This document shows, one piece after another, positions 1 through 58,857 of a stretch of 64,000 bases of DNA (the first letter of the stretch is position 1; each line of letters starts with the position of its first letter). The position numbers were made by a program, and so were the translations under genes. Origin of the DNA: Rubrivivax gelatinosus (GTDB lineage Bacteria; Pseudomonadota; Gammaproteobacteria; Burkholderiales; Burkholderiaceae_C); the NCBI RefSeq assembly GCF_016583785.1, contig NZ_NRRU01000002.1:1-64000 (forward strand), in the 5' to 3' direction. The notes under the pieces were generated by a model. It was not told where the DNA came from. It made no database searches and saw only the letters and a program-made list of their open reading frames with translations.

Positions 1-40
1 AAACGGCGGGGCCGGTGCTGGTGATCGGGGTCGGGCTCAT
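1..40 (-). CDS. 5' end of an unidentified gene leaving the window
   Basis: An ATG at 38-40 on the minus strand is preceded by a good AGGAG ribosome-binding site and reads MSPTPITSTGPAV before the window ends. Nothing can be said about function. I call it a gene because a sigma-54-type promoter (68-81, minus strand) lies directly upstream at the spacing seen for other genes in this window. Confidence 0.55.
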   Translation of the reverse strand, partial: MSPTPITSTGPAV

Positions 41-67
41 GGCTTCTCCTGGTGAGGCTTTCGCCCG

Positions 68-81
68 GCAACAGGCGTTCC
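68..81 (-). promoter_or_regulatory. sigma-54-type -24/-12 promoter
   Basis: Minus-strand GGAACGCCTGTTGC has GG and GC separated by 10 bases and the TTGC block, one base from the GGCACG-N4-TTGC consensus. The predicted start near 56 gives a leader of about 16 bases before the ATG at 40, with its ribosome-binding site inside. It sits 5 bases from a plus-strand element of the same kind. Confidence 0.65.
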
Positions 82-86
82 GGCCG

Positions 87-100
87 GGTACGACTGTTGC
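87..100 (+). promoter_or_regulatory. sigma-54-type promoter, divergent partner
   Basis: GGTACGACTGTTGC is one base from consensus. The predicted transcription start near 112 falls on the ATG at 113, so the message would be leaderless or the downstream gene starts later. Confidence 0.5.
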
Positions 101-112
101 CTGCGCCGGACG

Positions 113-409
113 ATGAACAAACCTTCGTCCCCGCCGCCGTCCGCCTCCCGGACGCGCCCCCAGCCCCCGTCGCCGGCAGCCGTCGGCAAGCCGCCGGTGG
201 CGCCGGGCAACGACGCCAGCGACGACGGCAGCGGGCTGCCGCTGCCGCACGAACGCGACGAGGCACCCGACGCGCCCGGAGGCAAGCCGCGGCCCGTCAT
301 CGAACAGGCGCGGCGCGACATCGAGAGCGGCCAGGTCGACACCGACATGCGCAGCTCCGCCGGCCTCGACGCCGACGCGCGCAAAAAGGCTTTGCGCGGC
401 GGGTCCTGA
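113..409 (+). CDS. hypothetical proline-rich hydrophilic protein
   Basis: The 98-residue product is unrecognised. The first 50 residues are rich in Pro, Ser and Ala and probably disordered. The C-terminal half is charged, with PGGKPRPVIEQARRDIESGQVDTD the most gene-like part. There is no signal peptide or membrane segment, so it is probably cytoplasmic. The start is uncertain because the sigma-54-type promoter at 87-100 would begin transcription at about this ATG and no ribosome-binding site is visible; an internal GTG is possible. It points at a convergent gene ending at 424. Confidence 0.5.
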   Translation: MNKPSSPPPSASRTRPQPPSPAAVGKPPVAPGNDASDDGSGLPLPHERDEAPDAPGGKPRPVIEQARRDIESGQVDTDMRSSAGLDADARKKALRGGS

Positions 410-423
410 GGGCGGCGGCGCCT

Positions 424-747
424 TCAGCGGCGCAGCGCCTGCTCGAGTTGCGCCTTGTCCATCGCCGAACGGCCGGCGATGCCGGCCTTGCGCGCTTCCT
501 CGTAGAGCTGGCGGTAGCTGCGGCCGCCTTCGCCGCGGTGCGAGCGCAGGCCGCCGCGGCGCGACGGCGACAGGTCTTCGGTCGACGCCGGGCTCGCGCT
601 CTCGGCCTCGCCGGCCTGGGCGCGCACCTTGTTCACGGTGCGTGCCGCGATCTCCTCGGCGCTGTCCTCGGACTTGCCGCGCTCCAGCAGCCCGTCCTTG
701 ATGTGTTCGTACTGGCGTTCGCGCTTGGCGCTCCAGGCCTTGGGCAT
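424..747 (-). CDS. Rho-N-like / plasmid-stabilisation-like small basic protein
   Basis: The 107-residue product begins MPKAWSAKRERQYEHIKDG and continues with an AEEIAARTVNKVRAQ helix, a pattern I know from small proteobacterial proteins annotated as plasmid stabilisation or ChaB/Rho-N-like proteins. The middle is Ser/Gly/Arg-rich (RRGGLRSHRGEGGRS). The last 35 residues (YEEARKAGIAGRSAMDKAQLEQAL) resemble the SAP-like fold of Rho N-terminal domains and may bind nucleic acid. GGAG precedes the ATG. It lies 11 bases downstream of the hemerythrin gene on the same strand and is probably cotranscribed. The family is recognised, but its function is not established. Confidence 0.75.
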   Translation of the reverse strand: MPKAWSAKRERQYEHIKDGLLERGKSEDSAEEIAARTVNKVRAQAGEAESASPASTEDLSPSRRGGLRSHRGEGGRSYRQLYEEARKAGIAGRSAMDKAQLEQALRR

Positions 748-758
748 GCCGTGCTCCG

Positions 759-1313
759 TCAGTCCGGACGCAGCGGCTCGGCGGCGTCGGTCTGCTCGCG
801 CACCACGTCGCGCGGCGCGCCGTCACGGCGCAGACGGCCCTGCTCGCGCAGCATCTCGTGCCCCAGCTCCTGGCGCCGCGCCTTCGGCAGGGCCAGCACG
901 ACCTGCGGGAACAGGTGTTCCTCCTCCTCGCCGTGGTGGTGCACGCACTGCTCCTGCAGCACGTGCGCCTTGGCGCCGAAGGTGGCGTCGGCCGGGTCCA
1001 GGTCGAGCAGGTCGGCGAGCAGGCGCTTGAGCGACAGGTGCTCCTCCAGCGACTCGAGCAGCACGTCCTCGGTGCGTGCGCCGGCGACCGCGGGATAGAA
1101 CACCCGCTCTTCGGCCAGCACGTGCATCGTCAGCTCGTCGCCGACGGCGACCAGCGCCTGCGCGCGTGCATCCGGCTGCTCGGCGGCGTGGAGCCGGCGC
1201 AGCAGTTCCTCGAGGCGGCGGTGCTGGGCGACGAGCATCACGACGGCGTCGTCGGCTTCCGGAAGGGCGTGTTCCACGGCGTTCTCATGAGTGGTGATGG
1301 CAGCTGCGGGCAC
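759..1313 (-). CDS. hemerythrin-like (HHE cation-binding) domain protein
   Basis: This 184-residue protein has hemerythrin-type iron ligands in order: LVAQHRRLEEL, EERVFYP, EEHLSLKRLL, HHHGEEEEHLFP. They fit a four-helix bundle with a di-iron or other metal site for O2, NO or redox sensing or buffering. No signal or membrane segment is seen. The drawn start is a GTG with no clear ribosome-binding site, so an internal GTG is possible. It is the first of four HHE proteins in 20 kb. The next gene (424-747) follows after 11 bases. Confidence 0.85.
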   Translation of the reverse strand: MPAAAITTHENAVEHALPEADDAVVMLVAQHRRLEELLRRLHAAEQPDARAQALVAVGDELTMHVLAEERVFYPAVAGARTEDVLLESLEEHLSLKRLLADLLDLDPADATFGAKAHVLQEQCVHHHGEEEEHLFPQVVLALPKARRQELGHEMLREQGRLRRDGAPRDVVREQTDAAEPLRPD

Positions 1314-1336
1314 GCCGCGTGCCCGAGTGCGGGCCG

Positions 1337-2386
1337 ATGACCGAACCCGACCGTCCCCCGCCGCCTACACCCCGCCGCTCCGGGGGCGGCGGCCTCCGGG
1401 TCGGCCCCTGGCTGCTGCTGCTGCTCGCGCTGGCGCTGGCCTGGGTCCTGGTCGACGTGCTGATGCTGGTGTTCGCGGCGCTGCTGTTCGCCTTGATCCT
1501 GCGCGCGATGGCGCTGCCGCTGGAGCGCCGCGCCGGCCTGTCGCCGCGGCTGTCGCTGCCGCTGGTGCTGGTGGCGCTGGTGCTGGTCGTCGGCGGCGCC
1601 ATCGGCGTGGCCGGCGCCGGTGCCGTCGAGCAGATGCAGGCGCTGCGCGAGACGCTGCCGCGCGCCTGGACGGCGTTCCAGCGCTGGCTCGCCGACTACA
1701 CCACCGGGCGCTGGCTGCAGGAGCTGTGGCACAGCGCCAAACCCTTCGAAGACTGGAGCCGGCTCGCCGGCCTGGCCACCGGCACGATCAACGCCGCCAC
1801 CGGCGCGATCGGCGCCGCGGTGCTGCTGGTCGTGCTCGGCATCTACCTGGCCGCCGACCCCGGCACCTACCGCGACGGCCTGCTGAAGCTGGTGCCGCGC
1901 AGCCGGCGCGAGCTCGTCGCGCGCACGCTCGACGCCGCCGGCCGCGACCTCTCGCGCTGGCTGCTGGGCCAGGGGGTGTCGATGCTGCTCGTCGGCGCGC
2001 TCACCGGCATCGGGCTGGCGCTGATCGGCATGCCGCTGCTGCTGTCGCTGAGCCTGATCGCCGGGCTGCTGGAGTTCGTGCCCTACTTCGGGCCGATCAT
2101 CTCGGGCGTGCTGATCGTCGGCGTCGCGCTCGCCGAGGGCGAGGGGCTGGCGCTGCAGGCGCTGGTGGTCTGCGTCGCGGTGCAGCAGGCCGAGGGTTAT
2201 GTCGTGCAGCCGCTGGTGCAGCGCTGGGCGGTGCGGCTGCCGCCGGTGCTGGGCATGTGTTCGGTGCTGGTCTTCGGCGTGCTGTTCGGCCTGCCCGGGG
2301 TGCTGCTGGCGATGCCGCTGATGGTGCTGACGATGACGCTGGTCAGCGAGCTCTACGTCAAGACCGTGATCGAGCCGCAGCGCTGA
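1337..2386 (+). CDS. AI-2E family transporter (PerM/YdiK type)
   Basis: This is a 349-residue polytopic inner-membrane protein. After a short Pro-rich cytoplasmic N-terminus come two helices (WLLLLLALALAWVLVDVL, then PLVLVALVLVVGGAIGVAGAGAV). A soluble loop follows (QMQALRETLPRAW...), then further helices containing LLEFVPYFGPIISGVLIVGVAL, the family's conserved signature. The family includes AI-2 exporters and Na+/H+ antiporters, so substrate cannot be assigned from sequence. ATG at 1337 was chosen over an upstream GTG. A second member lies at 10960-12087. Confidence 0.88.
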   Translation: MTEPDRPPPPTPRRSGGGGLRVGPWLLLLLALALAWVLVDVLMLVFAALLFALILRAMALPLERRAGLSPRLSLPLVLVALVLVVGGAIGVAGAGAVEQMQALRETLPRAWTAFQRWLADYTTGRWLQELWHSAKPFEDWSRLAGLATGTINAATGAIGAAVLLVVLGIYLAADPGTYRDGLLKLVPRSRRELVARTLDAAGRDLSRWLLGQGVSMLLVGALTGIGLALIGMPLLLSLSLIAGLLEFVPYFGPIISGVLIVGVALAEGEGLALQALVVCVAVQQAEGYVVQPLVQRWAVRLPPVLGMCSVLVFGVLFGLPGVLLAMPLMVLTMTLVSELYVKTVIEPQR

Positions 2387-2535
2387 CGACGGCAAAACTT
2401 GCCCGCTGCCGGTCATTCGAGCGGCGCAGGGCTTGGCTTTCGCGCGTTTTCCCCGGTGATGGCGGTGTTTTGTCGCGGCATGCTTCTTGAAGGGAACACG
2501 CGGGGACGCCTGTGCCAGGCGCCGGAGGACAGCAG

Positions 2536-2694
2536 ATGAGCCCGAACCGCATCCGCGGCTGGCGCCGTTTCGGCGTCGGCCTGTTGTTGGTGGCTTCGCC
2601 CGCCTTCGGCGGCGACGCCGAGGTGTTCGAGATCGAGACGCTGGACGGCACGCCGCGGCTGCTGGTGCAGGCCGACAGCGGCGTGCGCAGCTGA
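2536..2694 (+). CDS. small secreted or periplasmic hypothetical protein
   Basis: The product is 52 residues. MSPNRIRGWRRFGVGLLLVASPAFG is a clear Sec signal peptide, likely cleaved after AFG, leaving about 27 residues (GDAEVFEIETLDGTPRLLVQADSGVRS). A strong GGAGG sits 8 bases before this ATG and fixes the start. An imperfect -24/-12 element (GGCATGCTTCTTGA, 2477-2490, with A where the -12 C belongs) lies upstream. Function is unknown. Confidence 0.6.
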   Translation: MSPNRIRGWRRFGVGLLLVASPAFGGDAEVFEIETLDGTPRLLVQADSGVRS

Positions 2695-2696
2695 CG

Positions 2697-2710
2697 GGTA
2701 TGGTCCTTGC
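2697..2710 (+). promoter_or_regulatory. sigma-54-type promoter of the CBS operon
   Basis: GGTATGGTCCTTGC followed by T keeps GG-N10-GC and TTGCT. The predicted transcription start near 2722 is about 26 bases before the CBS gene. Confidence 0.6.
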
Positions 2711-2747
2711 TTTGCGCGGTCACACACTCGAACCGGACACCCAGCCG

Positions 2748-3185
2748 ATGAACACGATTGCCGACGTCATGACGCGCGACCCGATCGCCATCCGGCCGAA
2801 GGAGACGGTGCAGCGCGCCGCGCAGCTGATGGACGAACTCAACGTCGGCTGCCTGCCGGTGTGCGAGGACTGGCAGGTGCGAGGCATCGTCACCGACCGC
2901 GACATCACCGTGCGCGCCATCGCCGCCGGGCTGGACCCTGCGGTCACCGAGATCGGCTCGGTGATGAGCGCCGGCGTGCGCTGCTGCTCGCAGCGCCAGC
3001 CGGCGGCCGAGGTGCTGCGGCAGATGTCGGCGGTGCAGATCCGGCGCCTGCCGGTGGTCGACGACCTGGGCCGCCTGGTCGGCATCGTCTCGCTCGGCGA
3101 CATGGCCGCAACCGGCACCGAGGGCGTCGAGGAAACGCTGCGCTGCATCTCGACCCCGGCCGGCCCGGACCGGGCCGCCGCATGA
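2748..3185 (+). CDS. tandem CBS-domain protein
   Basis: This 145-residue protein consists almost entirely of two CBS motifs (about residues 8-60 and 70-125: VMTRDPIAIRPKETVQRAAQLM and VMSAGVRCCSQRQPAAEVLRQM, each followed by a ...RLPVVDD/GIV turn). Paired CBS motifs bind adenosyl ligands such as AMP, ATP or NADH and sense energy or redox state. The first-domain sequence CLPVCEDWQVRGIVTDRDITVRAIA is typical of stress-related stand-alone CBS proteins. It overlaps the sugar dehydrogenase gene by ATGA, so the two are translationally coupled. Confidence 0.88.
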   Translation: MNTIADVMTRDPIAIRPKETVQRAAQLMDELNVGCLPVCEDWQVRGIVTDRDITVRAIAAGLDPAVTEIGSVMSAGVRCCSQRQPAAEVLRQMSAVQIRRLPVVDDLGRLVGIVSLGDMAATGTEGVEETLRCISTPAGPDRAAA

Positions 3186-4531
3186 GACCGCAGGACTGGT
3201 CCGCACCCACTGCCCTCAGGCCGGCCACGACGGCTGCCGCGCTGCTGCTCGCGGTGGCCGTGCTCGGCGGCTGCTCAGAGACCTCGCGCCTGCAGGTCGG
3301 TGCCGACGTCGGCCCCGAGCCGACGCTGGTCGAGCCGGTGCGGCGGCTGGTGCCGACGGTGAAGGTCGCGAAGGCCGTGGGCTGGCCCGCGGACACCGCG
3401 CCGGTCGCGGCCCCCGGGCTCGAGGTCCGGCCCTTCGCCACCGGGCTGGAGCACCCGCGCTGGCTGCAGGTGCTGCCCAACGGCGACGTGCTGGTCGCCG
3501 AGAGCAACGCGCCCGCACGCCCGGAAGAGGGCCGCGGCTTCAAGGCCTGGGTGATGAAGCTGGTGATGAAACGCGCCGGTGCCGGCGTGCCCAGCGCCGA
3601 CCGCATCACGCTGCTGCGCGACGCCGACGGCGATGGCCGGGCCGAGCTGCGCACGCCCTTCCTCGAGAACCTGCACTCGCCCTTCGGCATGGCGCTGATC
3701 GGCGACCGCTTCTTCGTCGCCAACACCGACGCGGTGATGGAGTACCCCTACCGCAGCGGCGACACCCGCATCACCGGCGCCGGCCGACGCCTGGCCGAAC
3801 TGCCGGCCGGCGCACGCAACCACCACTGGACCAAGAGCCTGATCGCCAGCCTGGACGGGCGCACGCTCTACGCCACCGTCGGCTCCAACAGCAACGTCGC
3901 CGAGAACGGCCTCGAGGAGGAGCGTGGCCGCGCCGCGATCTGGGCCATCGACGTCGCCAGCGGCGCGATGCGGCTGTACGCCAGCGGGCTGCGCAACCCC
4001 AACGGCATGGTCTGGGAGCCGGCGACCGGCGTGCTCTGGACCGTGGTCAACGAACGCGACGAACTCGGCAGCGACCTGGTGCCCGACTACCTGACTTCGG
4101 TGCGCGAAGGCGGCTTCTACGGCTGGCCCTGGCGCTGGTGGGGCCGCCACGTCGACAACCGGGTCGAGCAGCCGGCCTCGCTGCCCGAGGTGCTGGTGCC
4201 CGACTACGCGCTTGGCGCCCACGTTGCCGCGCTCGGCCTGGCCGCCGCGCGCGGCGCCGCGGTGACGACGCCACTGGGCGGCGCCACCGACGGCATGTTC
4301 ATCGGCCAGCACGGCTCGTGGAACCGCAGCCCGCCTTCGGGCTACAAGGTGGTGTTCGTGCCTTTCGTCGGCGGCCGGCCCTCGGGCCAGCCGGTGGACG
4401 TGCTGACCGGCTTCCTCGACGACGAGGGCCAGGCACGCGGGCGCCCGGTCGGGGTCGCGGTCGACCGCCGCGGCGCGCTGCTGGTGGCCGACGACGTCGG
4501 CAACGTCGTCTGGCGCGTCGCGCCGCGCTGA
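3182..4531 (+). CDS. PQQ-type glucose/sorbosone dehydrogenase-like lipoprotein
   Basis: The 449-residue protein begins with a lipoprotein signal (LLAVAVLGGC, lipid Cys about residue 31), so it is probably anchored in a periplasm-facing membrane. The rest is a beta-propeller of the GSDH/sorbosone dehydrogenase family: GLEHPRWLQVLPNGDVLVAESN opens the first blade, SNVAENGLEEERGRAAIWAID and ASGLRNPNGMVWEP are characteristic, and GQHGSWNRSPPSGYKVV is near the end. Members oxidise aldoses with pyrroloquinoline quinone; no PQQ synthesis genes are visible here, so cofactor and substrate are inferred. ATG overlaps the CBS stop. Confidence 0.85.
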   Translation: MRPQDWSAPTALRPATTAAALLLAVAVLGGCSETSRLQVGADVGPEPTLVEPVRRLVPTVKVAKAVGWPADTAPVAAPGLEVRPFATGLEHPRWLQVLPNGDVLVAESNAPARPEEGRGFKAWVMKLVMKRAGAGVPSADRITLLRDADGDGRAELRTPFLENLHSPFGMALIGDRFFVANTDAVMEYPYRSGDTRITGAGRRLAELPAGARNHHWTKSLIASLDGRTLYATVGSNSNVAENGLEEERGRAAIWAIDVASGAMRLYASGLRNPNGMVWEPATGVLWTVVNERDELGSDLVPDYLTSVREGGFYGWPWRWWGRHVDNRVEQPASLPEVLVPDYALGAHVAALGLAAARGAAVTTPLGGATDGMFIGQHGSWNRSPPSGYKVVFVPFVGGRPSGQPVDVLTGFLDDEGQARGRPVGVAVDRRGALLVADDVGNVVWRVAPR

Positions 4532-4542
4532 GGTCCCGACAC

Positions 4543-4569
4543 GAGGGCGGCGCGCCAGGCGCCGCCCTC
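4543..4569. terminator. stem-loop between convergent genes
   Basis: An 11-bp GC stem (4543-4553 with 4559-4569) and 5-base loop lie between the dehydrogenase stop and the convergent gene ending at 4577. There is no T-tract, so termination efficiency is uncertain. Confidence 0.45.
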
Positions 4570-4576
4570 GCCGCCG

Positions 4577-5098
4577 TCAGCGGTAGACGCCTTCGGCGCT
4601 GGCGCCGCGCCAGTTCTGCTCGAACCAGGCCGCGTCTTCGTCGTTGCGCGGGCGCACGCCCATCAGGATGCCGCCTTCGCGGATGCCGCTCTCGTACGCC
4701 TTGACGCGTTCTTCCGGGATGCCCCAGCCGATCAGCGCGCCGAGCAGGCTGCCGGCCGCGCCGCCGGCACCGGCCCCGGCCAGCCCGGCGGCCAGCGGGC
4801 CCGCGATCACCAGGCCCAGGCCCGGCAAGGCGAGCGTGGTGCCGATGGCCGCCACCGCCGCGGCCACGGCGCCGACGGTGCCGCCGATGCCGGCGCCGAT
4901 ACCGGCGCCTTCGGCCGCCTTGGTGCCCATCTCGGTCTGGGGTGCGTCGGCGTTGGTGAAGTGGCGCTGGCGGGTCTCGTCGGACATCACGAGGTTGACG
5001 TCGTCACGGCCGTAGCCGCGGTCGACGACACCCTGGTAGGCCGCCTCGGCCGCTTCGCGGTCGCGGAACAGGCCGGTGAGTACTTTGGGTTCAGTCAT
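4577..5098 (-). CDS. general stress protein 17M-like (YflT) domain protein with glycine-zipper segment
   Basis: The product is 173 residues. Residues 1-45 (MTEPKVLTGLFRDREAAEAAYQGVVDRGYGRDDVNLVMS) are a YflT/GsiB-17M-like alpha-beta domain. Residues 60-130 are an Ala/Gly-rich hydrophobic stretch with repeated GxxxG spacing (GIGAGIGGTVGAV, LAAGLAGAGAGGAAGSLLGALIG) that could insert in a membrane. The C-terminus returns to a soluble fold (YESGIREGGILMGVRPRNDEDAAW). An AGGAG ribosome-binding site and sigma-54-type promoter (5130-5143) precede it, divergent from the gene at 5237. Confidence 0.8.
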   Translation of the reverse strand: MTEPKVLTGLFRDREAAEAAYQGVVDRGYGRDDVNLVMSDETRQRHFTNADAPQTEMGTKAAEGAGIGAGIGGTVGAVAAAVAAIGTTLALPGLGLVIAGPLAAGLAGAGAGGAAGSLLGALIGWGIPEERVKAYESGIREGGILMGVRPRNDEDAAWFEQNWRGASAEGVYR

Positions 5099-5129
5099 GT
5101 CTGGCTCCTGGTTGCATGCCGCCGGTTTG

Positions 5130-5143
5130 GCAAGGCCTGTACC
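5130..5143 (-). promoter_or_regulatory. sigma-54-type promoter
   Basis: Minus-strand GGTACAGGCCTTGC; the predicted transcription start near 5118 is 20 bases from the start codon at 5098. Confidence 0.65.
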
Positions 5144-5166
5144 CGTGCCTGCGAAGCAGCACGCGC

Positions 5167-5180
5167 GGCACAGCCCTTGC
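5167..5180 (+). promoter_or_regulatory. sigma-54-type promoter
   Basis: GGCACAGCCCTTGC matches all of GGCAC and TTGC. The leader to the ATG at 5237 is about 45 bases. It is the divergent partner of 5130-5143. Confidence 0.7.
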
Positions 5181-5236
5181 CGCCCGAGGGCAGGCGGCCC
5201 AGGAGGGCCGGCCGAAACCTGAGAAAGGATGCAGAG

Positions 5237-6283
5237 ATGACTCAGCACGACGATCGTTTCAGGCAGCAAGGCAGTTCCCCCGACGAGCGCCGCCAGTGGG
5301 AGCAGGCGGGCCGCTCCGACGCGCAGGCCGGCAGCGGCGGCACGCGCAGCAGCGGCGGCAGCAACTACGGCGACTGGCGCGGTGACGACAACAACCGCGG
5401 CCAGATGGGCAGTGGCCAGGACGACTACAGCCGCCAGGGCGGACAGCAGGACCAGTACAGCTCGCGTGGCGGCCAGCAGGGCGGCAACCCGGGCTGGAGC
5501 CAGGGCGGCACGCCTGGTTACGGCTCCGGCAGGCCGGGCGAGCGTGCCTATGGCTCGACGGGCCCGGGCCGCGGTGCGCCGAGCGGCTACGGCGGGTCCG
5601 ACCGCTTCGGCAGCAGCGAAGACACCTTCCGCGGCGGCAGCCCCGAGTACGGTGCCGGCGGCAGCCGCGGCGACTGGAGCAGTTCCGGCCGCCAGGGCGG
5701 CATGGGTGGGATGGGTGGCCTGGGCGACTGGGGTTCGCCGCAGCGCCATGAGGACTGGGGCCGCAACCCGGCAGGAGGCGGCGCGTGGGGCCAAGGCAGC
5801 CAGGGCGGCTGGAGCCCGGGTCAGCAAGGCGGCACCGCCGGCCAAGGCGCCTGGAACCAGAGCCAGCAAGGCGGCTACGCCGGCCAGGGTGGCTGGAATC
5901 AGGGCCAGGGGCAGGACCACCACCCGCACGACCCTGACTACCACCAGTGGCGCAGCGAACAGATGCGCGCGCTCGACGACGACTACCGCAACTGGCGCCA
6001 GGACCGCTACAAGAAGTTCTCCGACGAGTTCAACCAGTGGCGCAGCAACCGCAGTGCCGGCGCTTCGCCCAGCGGCTCGGTCTCCGACAGCCGTTCCACC
6101 CAGGCCAGCCTGGGTTCGTCCTCGTCGGGCGTGGGCGGCAGCGGCATGGCCGGCAGCACAGGCAGCACGGGCAGCAGCTCCACCGGCAACGGCGGGGCCG
6201 GCAGCAGCCTGGGTGGCACCGGCAGTGGCAGCCTGAACGGCGAGTCCGACACCGGCGCCGGCAAGGGCGCCAAGACGCGCTGA
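5237..6283 (+). CDS. Gly/Ser/Gln-rich low-complexity protein
   Basis: The 348-residue product is dominated by Gly, Ser, Gln, Asn and Trp, with imperfect repeats such as GGWNQGQ, GAWNQSQ and GGWSPGQ (residues 175-230). A charged helical block (HHPHDPDYHQWRSEQMRALDDDYRNWRQDRYKKFSDEFNQWRSNR, split here as residues about 230-277) is the only ordered-looking part and is the conserved element in similar Burkholderiales proteins I have seen. A Ser/Thr/Gly-rich tail follows. There is no signal peptide. The composition suggests a hydrated, aggregation-prone stress or matrix protein. AAAGGA precedes the ATG, and a sigma-54-type promoter lies at 5167-5180. Confidence 0.8.
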   Translation: MTQHDDRFRQQGSSPDERRQWEQAGRSDAQAGSGGTRSSGGSNYGDWRGDDNNRGQMGSGQDDYSRQGGQQDQYSSRGGQQGGNPGWSQGGTPGYGSGRPGERAYGSTGPGRGAPSGYGGSDRFGSSEDTFRGGSPEYGAGGSRGDWSSSGRQGGMGGMGGLGDWGSPQRHEDWGRNPAGGGAWGQGSQGGWSPGQQGGTAGQGAWNQSQQGGYAGQGGWNQGQGQDHHPHDPDYHQWRSEQMRALDDDYRNWRQDRYKKFSDEFNQWRSNRSAGASPSGSVSDSRSTQASLGSSSSGVGGSGMAGSTGSTGSSSTGNGGAGSSLGGTGSGSLNGESDTGAGKGAKTR

Positions 6284-6301
6284 TCCCGCCGCGACCATGG
6301 C

Positions 6302-6327
6302 AAAGGGGCGCCGCGAGGCGCCCCTTC
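6302..6327. terminator. bidirectional stem-loop terminator
   Basis: AAGGGGCGCC-GCGA-GGCGCCCCTT forms a 10-bp stem between the low-complexity gene and the convergent rpoN gene, with short T and A runs on either side. Confidence 0.6.
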
Positions 6328-6346
6328 TGGTTCGGCCGCGGCAGCT

Positions 6347-7783
6347 TCAGCTGTGGCGGCGACGGCGCTCGACTGACTCGATCTTCAGCATCTGCCGGTA
6401 CTTGGTGACGGTGCGGCGCGCGACCACCAGGCCCTGGCGCGCGAGCTGGCGCGTGATCTCGGCGTCCGACAGCGGGCTCTCGGAGCGTTCGGCCTCGATG
6501 ATGTCCTTGATCAGGCCGCGGATCGCGGTCGCCGAGCAGGCGCTGCCGTTGGCGCTGATCATCGCGCGCGAGAAGAAGTACTTCAGCTCGAAGACGCCGA
6601 TCGGCGTAGCCATGTACTTGTTGTTCGTGACGCGCGAGACGGTGGACTCGTGGATGCCGACCTCGTCGGCGATCTCGCGCAGCACCAGCGGCTTCATCGC
6701 CATCGGCCCGTACTCGAGGAAGTGGCGCTGGCGGCGCACGATCGCGGTGGCGACGTCGAGGATGGTCGAAAAACGCTGCTCGACGTTGCGCAGCGTCCAG
6801 CGTGCGTCCTGCAGATGACCGGCCATCTCGGTGTTCTGCGCGCTGCGGTGGCGCTGGAACAGCTCGGCATAGACCTGGTTGAAGCGCACCTTGGGCACGA
6901 CGGCCGGGTTCAGCTGCACGTTCCACTGCCCGCGCACGCGTCTGACCAGCACGTCGGGCACGACGTAGGCCACCTGCGTCGAGCCGAAGTGCCAGCCGGG
7001 GCGCGGGTCCAGGCGGCGGATGCGGTCGCAGACGGCCTCGACGCGCGCCGGCGTCTCGCCGAGCTGGTGCGCCAGGCCGTTGACGTCCTTGGCCGCCAGC
7101 GTCTGCAGGTGCTGGCCGACGATGCGTTCGGCCAGCGCGCGCATCTGCGGACAGTCGATCTTGCCCAGCTGCAGCTGCAGGCATTCGGCGACGCTGCGCG
7201 CGGCCACACCCGCCGGGTCCAGCGACTGCACGCGCTTGAGCGCGATCGTCAGCTCCACCAGCGTCGGCGGCGGGTCCAGCTGCAGCACCTGGGCCACCTC
7301 CTCCAGCGGGGTGCGCAGATAGCCGTCGTCGTCGAGCGACTCGACGATGGCGCGCGCCAGCATCAGGTCGCGGTGGGCCAGCGGCAGCACCCCGAGCTGC
7401 TCGTGCAGATGCATGTTCAGCGTCGTCTCGACCGCCATCATCTCCATCGCCGAAATCTCGCCGTCCTCGGCGCGGCGGGTCGACCCGGCGGTATCGCCCT
7501 GCCACATGTCGCGGTCGTCGCCGGCCTCGTTGCCGGCGATGCCGTCCAGTTCCTGCGGCTCCGAGTCGCGATCGGATTCGCGCTCGGCGGCGTCGTCGGC
7601 GCCCGGCAGGGCTTCGCCGTCGTCGCCTTCCTCGGTCTCGAGGAACGGGTTCTGCCCGAGCTTGTCGCGCACCATCGCCGCGAAATCCAGCGAGGACATC
7701 TGCAGCAGGCGCACGGCGTGCTGCAGCCGCGGCGAAAGCGTCTGCGTCTGTCGGTGTTCGGTCCTCAGGTCCATCGATGCCAT
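6347..7783 (-). CDS. rpoN: RNA polymerase sigma-54 factor (RpoN paralog)
   Basis: This 478-residue protein is a complete sigma-54. Region I is Gln/Leu-rich (LRTEHRQTQTLSPRLQHAVRLLQMSS, residues 5-30). Region II is acidic (about 45-100). The core-binding domain is at about 110-300. The HTH ESTVSRVTNNKYMATPIGVFELKYF is near 370. The RpoN box is ARRTVTKYRQML near the C-terminus, close to the canonical ARRTVAKYRE that contacts the -24 element. AGGAGG precedes the ATG. The usual rpoN neighbours (lptB, hpf, pts) are absent, so this is probably an extra copy. Its own upstream region has a perfect sigma-54 promoter (7860-7873), suggesting autoregulation. Confidence 0.95.
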   Translation of the reverse strand: MASMDLRTEHRQTQTLSPRLQHAVRLLQMSSLDFAAMVRDKLGQNPFLETEEGDDGEALPGADDAAERESDRDSEPQELDGIAGNEAGDDRDMWQGDTAGSTRRAEDGEISAMEMMAVETTLNMHLHEQLGVLPLAHRDLMLARAIVESLDDDGYLRTPLEEVAQVLQLDPPPTLVELTIALKRVQSLDPAGVAARSVAECLQLQLGKIDCPQMRALAERIVGQHLQTLAAKDVNGLAHQLGETPARVEAVCDRIRRLDPRPGWHFGSTQVAYVVPDVLVRRVRGQWNVQLNPAVVPKVRFNQVYAELFQRHRSAQNTEMAGHLQDARWTLRNVEQRFSTILDVATAIVRRQRHFLEYGPMAMKPLVLREIADEVGIHESTVSRVTNNKYMATPIGVFELKYFFSRAMISANGSACSATAIRGLIKDIIEAERSESPLSDAEITRQLARQGLVVARRTVTKYRQMLKIESVERRRRHS

Positions 7784-21105: not shown

Positions 21106-22074
21106 TCAGATCGCGCCGACGCTGCCGGTCACCGGCAGCACGATGCCGGTGATGTAGCCCGCGCAGACCGGCGAGGCCAGGAAGACGTAGGCCGGCGACA
21201 GCTCCTCGGGCTGGGCGGCGCGCTTGAAGTCGGTCTGCTGGCCGAACTCGGCCACGTCTTCGGCCGGGCTGTCGGCCGGGTTCAGCGGCGTCCACACCGG
21301 GCCGGGCGCGACCGCGTTGACGCGGATGCCGCGGCCGATCAGGTTGCTCGCCAGCGACTTGGTGAAGGCGTGGATCGCGCCCTTGGTCGCCGAATAGTCC
21401 AGCAGCCGCGCACTGCCGCGCAGGCCCACGACCGAGCCGGTGTTGATGATCGAGCCGCCCCGGCGCAGATACGGCAGCGCGGCGCGCGCCATGCGGAAAT
21501 AACCGCCGATGTTGGTGTCCAGCGTTTCCATCAGGCGCAGGTCGTCGATCTCCTCCAGGCCTTGCGCGTGCTCCTGGAAGGCGGCGTTGTTGACGAGCAC
21601 GTCGAGCCGGCCGAAGGCGTCGACCGTCTGCTCGACGGCCTGGCGGCACCAGGCGTCGTCCTTGACGTCGCCCTTGAGCAGCAGGCAGCGCCGGCCTTCG
21701 GCTTCGACGTGGCGCCGGGTTTCCTGCGCGTCATCGTCCGACGAGTGGTAGGCGACGGCGACGTCGGCACCTTCGCGTGCGAACAGCACCGCCACCGCCC
21801 GGCCGATGCCGGAATCGGCGCCGGTGATCAGCGCCACGAAGTCCTGCAGCTTGGCGCTGCCGCGGTAGTCGGGCGCGAGGAAATGGGGCTTCAGTTCGAG
21901 GTCGGCCTCCTGCCCGGGTTTGTCCAGGTGCTGGGCCGGCAGTCGGACCGGCTGTTCACGCGCGCCGGCCTGCACCGCCGCCGCCTCGGGCGCCTCGGTC
22001 CGGGCGGCGTCGCGGCCGTCCTGCTGCTGCTGGATGTCGCGCTGCGTCTGCAGCGTGCTGTCGTCGGTCGCCAT
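21106..22074 (-). CDS. SDR-family oxidoreductase (YghA-like)
   Basis: The product is 322 residues. The first 45 are a Gln/Asp-rich extension; YRGSAKLQDFVALITGADSGIGRAVAVLFAREGADVAV contains the TGxxxGIG nucleotide-binding motif, NNAAF the next block, TGSVVGLRGSARLLDYSATKGAIHAF the catalytic Ser and YxxxK, and PVWTPLNPAD the substrate loop. The long N-terminus plus PGPVWTPL are typical of YghA-type short-chain aldehyde/alcohol oxidoreductases seen with stress genes. It overlaps nothing and is probably in one transcript with the genes at 22096 and 20036. Confidence 0.92.
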   Translation of the reverse strand: MATDDSTLQTQRDIQQQQDGRDAARTEAPEAAAVQAGAREQPVRLPAQHLDKPGQEADLELKPHFLAPDYRGSAKLQDFVALITGADSGIGRAVAVLFAREGADVAVAYHSSDDDAQETRRHVEAEGRRCLLLKGDVKDDAWCRQAVEQTVDAFGRLDVLVNNAAFQEHAQGLEEIDDLRLMETLDTNIGGYFRMARAALPYLRRGGSIINTGSVVGLRGSARLLDYSATKGAIHAFTKSLASNLIGRGIRVNAVAPGPVWTPLNPADSPAEDVAEFGQQTDFKRAAQPEELSPAYVFLASPVCAGYITGIVLPVTGSVGAI

Positions 22075-22095
22075 CGGTGCTCCTGTGATGCCGGC

Positions 22096-22602
22096 TCAGC
22101 GCGGCGTGTCCTCGGGCGCCGGCCGCAGGTCGGCGCGTTCGCCCTCTTCGCCCGACCGCGTCTGGGCATCCAGGCCGCGGTCGGGCGACTCGGCGACCTG
22201 CGGCAGGTCGCCCGGGTGGTCTATCAGTTCCTCGATGACGAAGCGGCCGTAGAGCTGGGCGCGTTCGGCACCGTGCGGGCGCACCGCGTCCGCGATGCGC
22301 TGGGCGAGTTCGTCGTCACCGGCGCGCACGACCAGCCAGTGGTAGCCGCGTGCGGCAAGTTCACGCTGCGCCTTCGCCAGGTTGAGCTCCTGCCCGAGCG
22401 CGGCCAGAGGGCTGGCGTGGGCCAGGTCCTCGTCCAGGCGCTCGAACATCTCGCGGTCGCTGAAGCGGCGCAGGTCGCCCGGCGGCAGTGCCAGCGGGGC
22501 CAGCGCCTGCTCGGCCGCCGCGGCCTGCACGGCAGAGGGAAACGAGATCACGACGTGCCCCTCGGGCTTGAACACGCCGAAGCTGCGTTCTTCTCGGTCC
22601 AT
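22096..22602 (-). CDS. hypothetical cytoplasmic protein
   Basis: The 168-residue soluble protein (EERSFGVFKPEGHVVISFP...) is of a type I have seen only as a hypothetical in Burkholderiales. Residues 10-130 look like a folded alpha-beta domain, including HWLVVRAGDDELAQRIADAV and YGRFVIEELI; the last 35 are charged and disordered. AAGGAAG precedes ATG 22602 and a sigma-54-type promoter lies at 22638-22651. It is first in a likely transcript with the SDR and nitronate monooxygenase genes. Confidence 0.75.
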   Translation of the reverse strand: MDREERSFGVFKPEGHVVISFPSAVQAAAAEQALAPLALPPGDLRRFSDREMFERLDEDLAHASPLAALGQELNLAKAQRELAARGYHWLVVRAGDDELAQRIADAVRPHGAERAQLYGRFVIEELIDHPGDLPQVAESPDRGLDAQTRSGEEGERADLRPAPEDTPR

Positions 22603-57153: not shown

Positions 57154-57506
57154 GTCGTCTTGCTTCTGGCCGCGGTGCGGCGTGGTCAACACGCGATTCT
57201 GCGCCAGCGGCGAGTCTGCAAACGCATCATGCGCACCCGAAGAAGCGGCCGCGGCCGCGGCATCGGGCAAGCAGACGCAAGGCATCGACGAAGCAAGTGG
57301 CAGGACGCCCGAGGACGTATTGCGGCTGCACCCGCCCCGGGGCCTCAGTTCGGAGTCGAAACCACGCGTCGTGCACGATGCGCAGCCTGCGCAGAAGCGA
57401 AAAAGCCCGCCCGGTTTCCCGGGCGGGCTCTCGCCGAACTGTGTCTCCGCTTGCGGTTCCTGGTATCCGGAGTGATCCGGAAGAAGGCAAGACGAAAACG
57501 AATAAA
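57154..57506. other. intergenic region between fmdB-like gene and tRNA-Pro remnant
   Basis: About 350 bases without a credible gene; it contains the tRNA terminator at 57399-57429. Confidence 0.4.
57399..57429 (-). terminator. intrinsic terminator downstream of the tRNA-Pro 3' half
   Basis: An 11-bp stem AGCCCGCCCGG/CCGGGCGGGCT with TTTC loop is followed on the minus strand by TTTTTC. It is placed about 80 bases after the tRNA 3' end, as expected for the original tRNA-Pro transcript. Confidence 0.9.
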
Positions 57507-57558
57507 TGGTCGGGGTGGCGGGATTCGAACTCGCGACCCCTTGCACCCCATGCAAGTG
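57507..57558 (-). pseudogene. 3' half of split tRNA-Pro(GGG), including attachment-core copy
   Basis: Read leftward, CACTTGCATGGGGT (the repeated core) is followed by GCAAG, the T arm GCGAG-TTCGAAT-CCCGC, the acceptor strand CACCCCG, A and CCA. This is the 3' part of a tRNA-Pro from the anticodon stem on. The T stem has an A-C mismatch, consistent with loss of function. Joining it to 58326-58364 restores a 77-nt tRNA. Confidence 0.9.
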
Positions 57559-58057
57559 ATCCGCCATAAAAACCCTTAAGAATCAACCGCTTAGCTCGCG
57601 ACCCAGAGATTTCCGGGCATTTTATCCGGGCGCTCCTGCTGCCTCGCGGCTACTGTAAACACGGAGTCCGGCGTTGACCTATGGCTACAGACGCTGAGCC
57701 AAGGTCGCCTGCGACTCGGTCGACATCCATCCTAAGCAAGTTCTGGCCCTTCGTTCGGAGGCCAAAGAGCGCAGTCGAGCCGGTGTGGCCGAGATGCAGG
57801 CCGTCCGCGCCCGGTTTGACCCGGGCGCCGCGCACTTAGAGGTGGTGCGGTTTGCGTCTTGGGCAGTCGCCGAAGATGGTTAACATGCACTCCAACGTTT
57901 GAACGCAATAGAGCGCACGCGTCTAATCATGTGCGCCGTGGCACGATAATAGACGGCGTACTAATAAAAGCACGCTAGGCGAACTGCATAAGTCCGAATT
58001 ACGCGAGACAACACATCCAAAAATTATGTGATGCACGCCGTAACCCAGCATAGAAAA

Positions 58058-58134
58058 TGGTCGGGATGACAGGATTTGAACCTGCGACCCTCGGTCCCCC
58101 AGACCGATGCGCTACCAGGCTGCGCTACATCCCG
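58058..58134 (-). tRNA. tRNA-Pro(GGG), intact, inside the insertion
   Basis: The 77-nt sequence has acceptor CGGGATG/CATCCCG, D arm GCGC-AGCCTGGTA-GCGC, anticodon arm TCGGT-CTGGGGG-ACCGA (anticodon GGG), T arm GCAGG-TTCAAAT-CCTGT, discriminator A and encoded CCA. It differs from the split copy at many positions in the anticodon and T arms, so it is not a simple duplicate. Confidence 0.95.
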
Positions 58135-58161
58135 ACTGCCTCTCCCAAACGGGCGAGGAAT

Positions 58162-58216
58162 GCAAGTGCGTTACCGGGCGTGCTTCCCGGTGACGCACTT
58201 GCCTCACGGGCAAGTG
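58162..58216. repeat. competing hairpins built from tRNA-Pro-like repeats
   Basis: A 17-bp stem (58162-58178 with 58186-58202, one G-T pair) shares its right arm with a second stem (58196-58203 with 58209-58216), so the two cannot form together. The left arm with its flank (ATGCAAGTGCGTTACC, 58160-58175) matches 15 of 16 bases of the tRNA-Pro D/anticodon region at 58331-58346. Confidence 0.8.
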
Positions 58217-58325
58217 ATGCACCGGACGTTCACAGGGGTATCAGAACGATACCCGGATCGGCCTTGCAATGTACTGAACCACTACGACAGGGTATAGATT
58301 TTGCACCAAAACGAGGTTTCCAAGA

Positions 58326-58364
58326 ACCCCATGCAAGTGCGCTACCAGGCTGCGCTACACCCCG
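58326..58364 (-). pseudogene. 5' half of split tRNA-Pro(GGG)
   Basis: Read leftward, CGGGGTG-TA-GCGC-AGCCTGGTA-GCGC-A-CTTGC-ATGGGGT is the 5' 39 nt of a tRNA-Pro through the anticodon loop. After this the sequence (TCTTGGAAACC) no longer matches a tRNA. The promoter-proximal half still has a TATACT -10 element upstream. Confidence 0.92.
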
Positions 58365-58376
58365 ACGAAGCCTCGC

Positions 58377-58408
58377 AGTATACCCTAGAAGAACGCCAAT
58401 CGAGTCAA
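58377..58408 (-). promoter_or_regulatory. probable promoter of the tRNA-Pro locus
   Basis: TATACT (58377-58382) lies 13 bases before the tRNA 5' end. A TTGACT at 58403-58408 is the best -35, though the 20-base spacer is long. Transcription would pass through the half tRNA and the hairpins before the intact tRNA-Pro. Confidence 0.5.
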
Positions 58409-58857
58409 GGCGTCAACAATTCGCGAATCGACAGCAGTTCGGCGCGCAGCCCGTCCAGATCGTCCGACGAAGCGAGCACGCCGCGGTCGCCGAGGCCGAT
58501 CAGGTCGCCGACACCGCGCTCCACGTCGGGTGTGTCTTCGCCATCCAAGGCCGGCAGCGCGGTCGCGTCGGCCGGATCGACTGCGGCGGAACGCGCACCG
58601 GGGTGATTCTCGGACAGTCGGTTGCGGGCTCCGCTGATCGTGAAGCCCTGCTCGTAGAGCAGTTCGCGAATGCGCCGGATCAGCAGCACCTCGTGGTGCT
58701 GGTAGTAGCGCCGGTTGCCACGGCGCTTCATGGGCTTGAGCTGCGTGAACTCCTGCTCCCAGTACCGCAGCACATACGGTTTGACACCGCAGAGCTCGCT
58801 CACCTCACCGATCGTGAAGTAGCGTTTGGCGGGGATGGCGGGAAGCGTTTTCTCCAC
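58405..58857 (-). CDS. MerR-family transcriptional regulator
   Basis: The 150-residue protein has the MerR winged-helix start AKRYFTIGEVSELCGVKPYVLRYWEQEFTQLKPMKRRGNRRYYQHHEVLLIRRIRELLYEQGFTISGARNRL (residues about 10-80) with no effector domain, only an acidic tail. This form always follows ihfA in Burkholderiales. Start is GTG 58857 (MEKTLPAIPAKRYF), preferred to an upstream TTG. Role unknown; it is not obviously metal-responsive, as no C-terminal cysteines are present. Confidence 0.92.
   Translation of the reverse strand: MEKTLPAIPAKRYFTIGEVSELCGVKPYVLRYWEQEFTQLKPMKRRGNRRYYQHHEVLLIRRIRELLYEQGFTISGARNRLSENHPGARSAAVDPADATALPALDGEDTPDVERGVGDLIGLGDRGVLASSDDLDGLRAELLSIRELLTP

What the first reader, a model, noticed from the sequence alone, without database searches (positions are those of the whole stretch)
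57507..58364. tRNA-Pro split by an insertion that carries a replacement tRNA-Pro
Seen: two halves of one tRNA-Pro(GGG), each next to a copy of a 14-bp repeat, 781 bp apart; joining them gives a perfect 77-nt cloverleaf length. The insert contains a full tRNA-Pro(GGG) of different sequence. Known: tyrosine integrases often target the anticodon loop of tRNA genes, usually restoring the tRNA from attP. Inference: here the element destroyed the host gene and compensated with its own tRNA, so the element became essential. The 3' half has a T-stem mismatch, fitting decay.
Basis: partly seen in the sequence, partly recalled or inferred. Interest (0 to 1): 0.9.

Follow-up and report, generated by a model that had tools for sequence, protein, structure and literature searches.

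The report
Foreign tRNA replacing a split tRNA
In one Rubrivivax-like bacterium a small apparent leftover of an integrated mobile element has cut the cell's proline tRNA gene in half and carries a foreign-type proline tRNA gene that now stands in for it, a stripped-down case of a recently described phage trick that shows how a conserved tRNA gene could be swapped for another.

Summary
A tRNA-Pro(GGG) gene beside ihfA-merR is cut in its anticodon loop by a 767-bp insert flanked by a 14-bp direct repeat. The joined halves are identical to the intact gene at the same place in 16 of 29 same-genus genomes examined, and the sister genome has the empty site. The insert's full tRNA-Pro(GGG) is the only GGG proline tRNA among the 45 tRNA genes found. 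It is of a non-native type. Best reading: relic of an integrase-borne element that broke its target tRNA and replaced it, as in 'tRNA-dependent lysogeny' (PMC10865867) and in Sinorhizobium (PMC11476347). No integrase gene is in the insert, so integrase and phage origin are inferred. New here: a different host group from those precedents, an element reduced to little more than the tRNA, a perfect internal core-like palindrome, and two other lineages of the genus with foreign-type tRNA-Pro(GGG), unsplit, in the native slot.

The parts
58327..58364 (-). 5' half of the native tRNA-Pro(GGG), 38 nt, ending in the anticodon loop
57507..57545 (-). 3' half of the native tRNA-Pro(GGG), 39 nt including CCA
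   Evidence: joined halves = 77 nt identical to the gene in 16 of 29 relatives
58326..58339 (-). 14-bp core repeat CACTTGCATGGGGT at the junction with the 5' half
57545..57558 (-). 14-bp core repeat CACTTGCATGGGGT at the junction with the 3' half
57559..58325 (.). insert, 767 bp, apparent relic of an integrated element; no recognisable protein gene
   Evidence: the parts either side of its tRNA match no phage or plasmid record
58058..58134 (-). intact replacement tRNA-Pro(GGG), non-native type, same orientation as the split gene
   Evidence: ARAGORN, Rfam 65.3 bits, only GGG proline tRNA among 45 tRNAs
58196..58216 (-). perfect palindrome CACTTGC-N7-GCAAGTG with the arms and spacing of the anticodon stem and loop; putative integrase core-type site (inferred)
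58160..58179 (-). 18 of 20 nt copy of the D-arm/anticodon-stem part of the native 5' half; an arm at 58186-58202 is complementary to this stretch
   Evidence: families D6, I1
58365..58404 (-). upstream of the split gene: retained -10-like TATACT, also in sister G024; may drive the replacement tRNA (inferred)
   Evidence: sequences read by eye; the promoter scan of 57380-58480 found no site

Best explanation
A mobile element with a tyrosine integrase (phage or integrative element) recombined a 14-bp core with the anticodon stem-loop of the host's only tRNA-Pro(GGG) gene. The core was too short to rebuild the gene, so the target was split, and the element's own tRNA-Pro(GGG) took over reading CCC and CCU codons. 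The element then lost its other genes, leaving 767 bp in which the tRNA is the only recognisable functional gene. Shown: empty site in the sister, duplicated core, split target, intact non-native tRNA as the only GGG reader found. Inferred: the integrase, the phage-like origin, expression of the new tRNA (possibly from the old promoter) and the deletion of the rest.
For: The joined halves equal the native gene in 16 of 29 relatives. The flanks are collinear with sister G024 with an exact 14-bp overlap; the sister pair has support 1.0 in a 30-genome tree. The breakpoint is the anticodon stem-loop, where a tyrosine-integrase prophage also sits in a viral contig (L079); a Pseudomonas prophage uses tRNA-Pro(GGG) in the same gene order, with the target restored and a 45-bp displaced copy at the other end (L116). 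The inserted tRNA is the sole tRNA-Pro(GGG) of 45 tRNAs and is not the type of 67 of 71 genus genomes. The insert carries a second core-type palindrome, 14 of 14 arm positions, reached by 0 of 3000 shuffles of the 192-nt stretch that holds it; the motif was chosen after it was seen. The same logic is documented: core 8-17 bp, no reconstruction, cognate tRNA carried (PMC10865867 Table 2; PMC11476347 passages).
Against: There is no integrase or any phage gene recognised in the insert. The parts either side of its tRNA match none of 50,697 phage and 72,556 plasmid records at E 0.01, and no genome of 299 in the family or 300 in the order convincingly (only two candidates per genome were scored, and the 190-bp right part was not searched alone in genomes). 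No complete version of the element was found. The halves carry no mutation, so the insertion looks young, yet the element is already tiny. The closest relatives of the tRNA include a member of the same genus, G033 (74 of 77), so a foreign donor is not pinned down. Expression and charging were not tested.
Confidence: 0.8

Rival explanations
1. The insert is a natively small, non-autonomous element (attachment site plus tRNA) moved by another element's integrase, rather than a shrunken prophage.
For: The halves are unmutated although the non-coding DNA just downstream does not align with the sister, so little time seems to have been available for shrinkage; a second core-type palindrome is present; the genome has 6 PF00589 matches elsewhere.
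Against: Only one copy in its own genome, neither broken junction in the other 80 genus genomes, and no relative of the non-tRNA part.
Confidence: 0.12
2. Transposon insertion with a 14-bp target-site duplication that happened to carry a tRNA.
For: There is a direct repeat and a short insert.
Against: No terminal inverted repeats (best 12-mer match 8 of 12); no transposase recognised; the repeat is exactly the 5' anticodon stem and loop, a known integrase site.
Confidence: 0.03
3. Assembly or binning artefact joining foreign DNA into the contig.
For: Fragmented assembly of 247 contigs; no read data available.
Against: Both flanks collinear with the sister and the junctions exact to the base on a 101-kb contig; completeness 100, contamination 1.02.
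Confidence: 0.04
4. Self-splicing intron or trans-spliced split tRNA, so that the native gene still works.
For: Group I introns can sit in bacterial tRNA anticodon loops (recalled).
Against: No intron family in Rfam at E up to 1 in 57480-58400; the 14-bp core is duplicated and a full second tRNA lies inside.
Confidence: 0.01

Closest known systems
tRNA-dependent lysogeny (mycobacteriophages Fionnbharth, Gabriela, Gaia; Gordonia phages; PMC10865867, abstract, passages and sections 10-11 seen)
   Same: Short core (8-17 bp there, 14 bp here), target tRNA not rebuilt, element carries a tRNA of the same anticodon.
   Different: There: intact phages of Actinobacteria with integrase and a tested requirement. 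Here: a 767-bp relic without integrase in a Rubrivivax-like genome, tRNA-Pro(GGG), no experiment.
Prophages like Mesorhizobium phage vB_MloP_Lo5R7ANS in Sinorhizobium meliloti (PMC11476347, passages seen)
   Same: Host tRNA-Leu(UAG) inactivated and replaced by a prophage tRNA whose best match is in other species.
   Different: Alphaproteobacterial host, prophages still present, different tRNA.
Classic tRNA-targeting prophages and islands (Islander, PMC4383910, listing and abstract start only; phiLM21 in tRNA-Pro(GGG), PMC12429752, passages; the MT121966.1 prophage)
   Same: Tyrosine integrase and a tRNA target; in MT121966.1 the same tRNA-Pro(GGG) gene in the same gene order.
   Different: They rebuild the tRNA from a long attP copy (45 bp in MT121966.1); this one does not.

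Membership tests
tRNA-dependent lysogeny | Insertion in a host tRNA gene with a short common core | tested here: met
   14-bp core, split gene, empty site in the sister
tRNA-dependent lysogeny | Functional tRNA not reconstructed at either junction | tested here: met
   ARAGORN and Rfam find only the internal tRNA; the 3' half scores 18.5 bits to tmRNA, below the gathering score 47
[quoted passage not shown]
   tRNA-Pro(GGG) at 58058-58134; sole GGG among 45 tRNAs
tRNA-dependent lysogeny | Tyrosine integrase encoded by the element | tested here: not met
   No integrase seen in six-frame translation of the insert; the 61-aa open stretch has no Pfam or PHROGs match. The genome has 6 PF00589 matches, all on other contigs, 5 over the cut-off
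tRNA-dependent lysogeny | Temperate phage; its tRNA required for viable lysogens | not testable with these tools
   No phage genes recognised; needs genetics
Classic tRNA-targeting island (target restored) | Intact regenerated target at one end | tested here: not met
   Both ends hold only halves
Transposon with target-site duplication | Terminal inverted repeats or transposase | tested here: not met
Group I intron | Conserved catalytic core | tested here: not met
   no intron family at E up to 1

The most novel reading that the evidence does not exclude
Integrative elements repeatedly replace this conserved tRNA gene wholesale: the element splits the native gene and supplies another; it shrinks; then recombination between the native 5' half and the incoming tRNA (they share the 22-nt TGTAGCGCAGCCTGGTAGCGCA) leaves the incoming tRNA behind the native promoter. 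This genome is caught midway. G026/G035 (grouping with native-type G010) and G033 (placement weakly supported), which carry unsplit foreign-type tRNA-Pro(GGG) in the native slot, would be finished products.
Probability: 0.4. Interest if true: 0.65.

Novelty: new member of a known kind. Interest (0 to 1): 0.48.

Why it matters
tRNA genes are treated as conserved host furniture. This locus looks like an intermediate of a swap: native gene cut, another tRNA in charge, element almost gone. It extends tRNA replacement by mobile elements to a Rubrivivax-like host and suggests that, after the element decays, a tRNA of other origin can remain as the only copy in the genome. It also gives a testable route for the scattered foreign-type tRNA alleles seen in relatives.

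Tried and rejected
Decay of the native 3' half: rejected, because its T-stem mismatch is in all 67 native-type genes listed by the genus pattern search and the joined gene is identical to that of 16 of 29 relatives. Source of the non-tRNA insert: whole-locus searches gave 182 phage and 178 plasmid records, 20 rows of each seen, matching the tRNA or the halves only, at most 12% and 16% of the query covered; the two non-tRNA parts searched alone gave no match in either collection at E 0.01. In 299 family genomes the listed matches lay in the tRNA. In 300 order genomes (own included) four weak hits at E 5e-5 to 5e-4, 31-66 bases long; the alignments were read for all four and the ORFs around three; judged chance. 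The 61-aa open stretch 57698-57880 gave no phage match, one weak plasmid match (E 0.3) and no Pfam or PHROGs family. A complete element: the right-junction pattern, the left-end pattern and two foreign-type tRNA patterns found nothing in viral contigs; a loose palindrome pattern found three viral contigs without tRNAs in the stretches held, judged unrelated by eye. The internal palindrome as a copy of another host tRNA: best match among the 45 tRNAs is 14 of 21. Intron: no Rfam match. Transposon: no terminal repeats.

Limits: only two candidates per genome were scored (a few genomes had fewer) and the long lists were cut. Searches need exact matches, so junctions with other bases would be missed. 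The genus pattern missed 10 of 81 genomes, 3 of them among the 53 that are at least 90% complete and at most 5% contaminated; these were not followed up, except that a 9-kb stretch of G020 showed only tRNA-Pro(TGG) and tRNA-Arg. The family pattern matched 111 of 299 and says nothing of the rest. The tree uses 30 of 81 genomes, protein fragments of pheT, ihfA and merR, and has weak deep nodes (G033: 0.27).

Full report
What is there. The window is on contig 2 of a 5.35-Mb, 247-contig genome. On the minus strand the order is pheS, pheT, ihfA, a merR-type gene, then tRNA-Pro (protein names by eye from the ORF translations). The tRNA-Pro(GGG) gene is cut in its anticodon loop: 5' half 58327-58364, 3' half 57507-57545, with the 14-bp CACTTGCATGGGGT at both cuts and 767 bp of unique insert.

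Is it more than chance? Joined, the halves give 77 nt identical to the intact gene at this locus in 16 of the 29 relatives examined; 10 more differ by 1-3 nt and 3 carry another type. A genus-wide pattern for the gene matched 71 of 81 genomes, once each: 67 native type, 4 not (counted by hand); the 10 misses include 3 of the 53 good genomes. Sister genome G024 (support 1.0) has the empty site with collinear flanks and an exact 14-bp overlap. Exact patterns for the two broken junctions hit only this genome among 81.

The replacement. The insert holds one intact tRNA-Pro(GGG), 58058-58134, in the same orientation, 60 of 77 identical to the native gene. The genome's 45 Rfam tRNA matches, 44 fetched and one in the window, were retyped with ARAGORN and contain one GGG, one TGG and one CGG proline tRNA. 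So the GGG reader is the inserted one. In E. coli the UGG isoacceptor reads all four proline codons thanks to cmo5U34 (PMC4519876, passages); here the CmoB model gave 34.6 bits against a cut-off of 275, and among 14 control genomes one passed. CCC and CCT make up 22 of 91 proline codons in pheT, pheS, rplT and ihfA. This makes the inserted tRNA likely to be important; essentiality could not be tested.

Origin of the tRNA. The closest sequences found are 74 of 77: in G033 of the same genus, itself deviant, and in a bin titled uncultured proteobacterium. G026 and G035 match at 69 of 77. In a 398-genome phylum sample that lacks those three, the 19 best-placed other genomes are all of the phylum but outside the class, at 92, 91, 88% and lower. 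In the family sample the listed best match is 87%. Two actinobacterial plasmid records match 90.7% over 75 bases. Seventy-seven bases cannot fix a donor; that it is not the family's usual type is clear, that it came from another class is likely but not shown.

The rest of the insert. No protein family; no relative in phages or plasmids; nothing convincing in 299 family or 300 order genomes. It holds a perfect palindrome CACTTGC-N7-GCAAGTG at 58196-58216, the arms and 7-bp spacing of the anticodon stem-loop with another spacer. With two mismatches allowed, the window has two such sites, this one and the left core; 2 of 100 whole-window shuffles have as many. None of 3000 shuffles of the 192-nt stretch reaches 14 of 14, best 12; the motif was picked after inspection. 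Beside it lies an 18 of 20 copy of the native D-arm/anticodon stem. I read these as integrase core-type sites or relics of a further attachment site; that is inference.

Age. The halves show no change from the commonest native type, while the non-coding DNA just downstream does not align with the sister and the upstream gene stretch is 85% identical. The insertion therefore looks young relative to that split, and loss of the element's other genes, if it happened, was fast.

Comparison loci. MT121966.1, deposited as a Pseudomonas phage, contains IF-3 and, by eye, rplT, pheS, pheT and merR-like ORFs, then an intact tRNA-Pro(GGG), an unannotated PF00589 integrase and, 41 kb on, a 45-bp perfect copy of the tRNA 3' part: the classic restoring mode at the same gene. 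Viral contig L079 has a tyrosine integrase beside a lone 3' half (a tRNA-Pro by eye) with the same core; only 7.4 of its 31.2 kb was held, so its far end was not seen.

Other lineages. G033, G026 and G035 carry foreign-type tRNA-Pro(GGG), unsplit, directly behind merR, with no halves in the 12, 15 and 3.5 kb searched. G026/G035 group with native-type G010 (support 0.999); the placement of G033 is weak (0.27). In G026 versus G010 homology stops exactly at the tRNA 3' end. With this genome that suggests three separate replacements. That elements caused the two unsplit ones is a hypothesis.

Known work. Guerrero-Bustamante and Hatfull (PMC10865867; abstract, passages, sections 10 and 11 read) defined tRNA-dependent lysogeny: short core, tRNA not rebuilt, phage tRNA complements; they cite Lactobacillus prophage Lj965 as an earlier case and call for work outside Actinobacteria. 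The Sinorhizobium study (PMC11476347; passages read) reports tRNA-Leu(UAG) inactivated by a prophage and replaced by its tRNA. A related paper (PMC12429752; passages) finds phiLM21-like prophages, one of them in tRNA-Pro(GGG), to rebuild their targets. A search for 'tRNA-dependent lysogeny' listed 15 of 18 papers; no title or abstract start shown names Rubrivivax or Burkholderiales. Searches with near terms (20 of 23, 3 of 3, 12 of 742, 8 of 542, 8 of 10 papers listed) showed nothing closer in the listings. So the mechanism is known; host group and reduced relic appear new within those searches.

Verdict. It works like tRNA-dependent lysogeny. Formal membership is incomplete because no integrase is in the insert and phage origin is inferred.

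Noticed in passing
L116 (MT121966.1) 1-7489 and 47490: Record deposited as a Pseudomonas phage includes several kb of host chromosome (infC to tRNA-Pro) before the prophage; the integrase ORF next to the tRNA is not annotated, another integrase at 21176-22456 is.
   Followed up: partly
L034 8917-8993; L035 3023-3099; L036 3099-3175: Unsplit foreign-type tRNA-Pro(GGG) genes in the native merR slot of three genus members; downstream DNA differs even between the close pair G026 and G035.
   Followed up: partly
genus genomes G020, G379, G389: Genomes at least 90% complete in which the tRNA-Pro(GGG) pattern found nothing; the gene may be divergent, missing or broken.
   Followed up: no
window 57595-57604: A 10-nt piece of the native T-arm region (CTCGCGACCC) recurs inside the insert 65 bp from its copy in the 3' half; it may be chance or a trace of an older attachment site.
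   Followed up: no
family genomes G112, G227, G304: Two native-type tRNA-Pro(GGG) genes 300-414 bp apart in tandem in three genomes of one genus.
   Followed up: no
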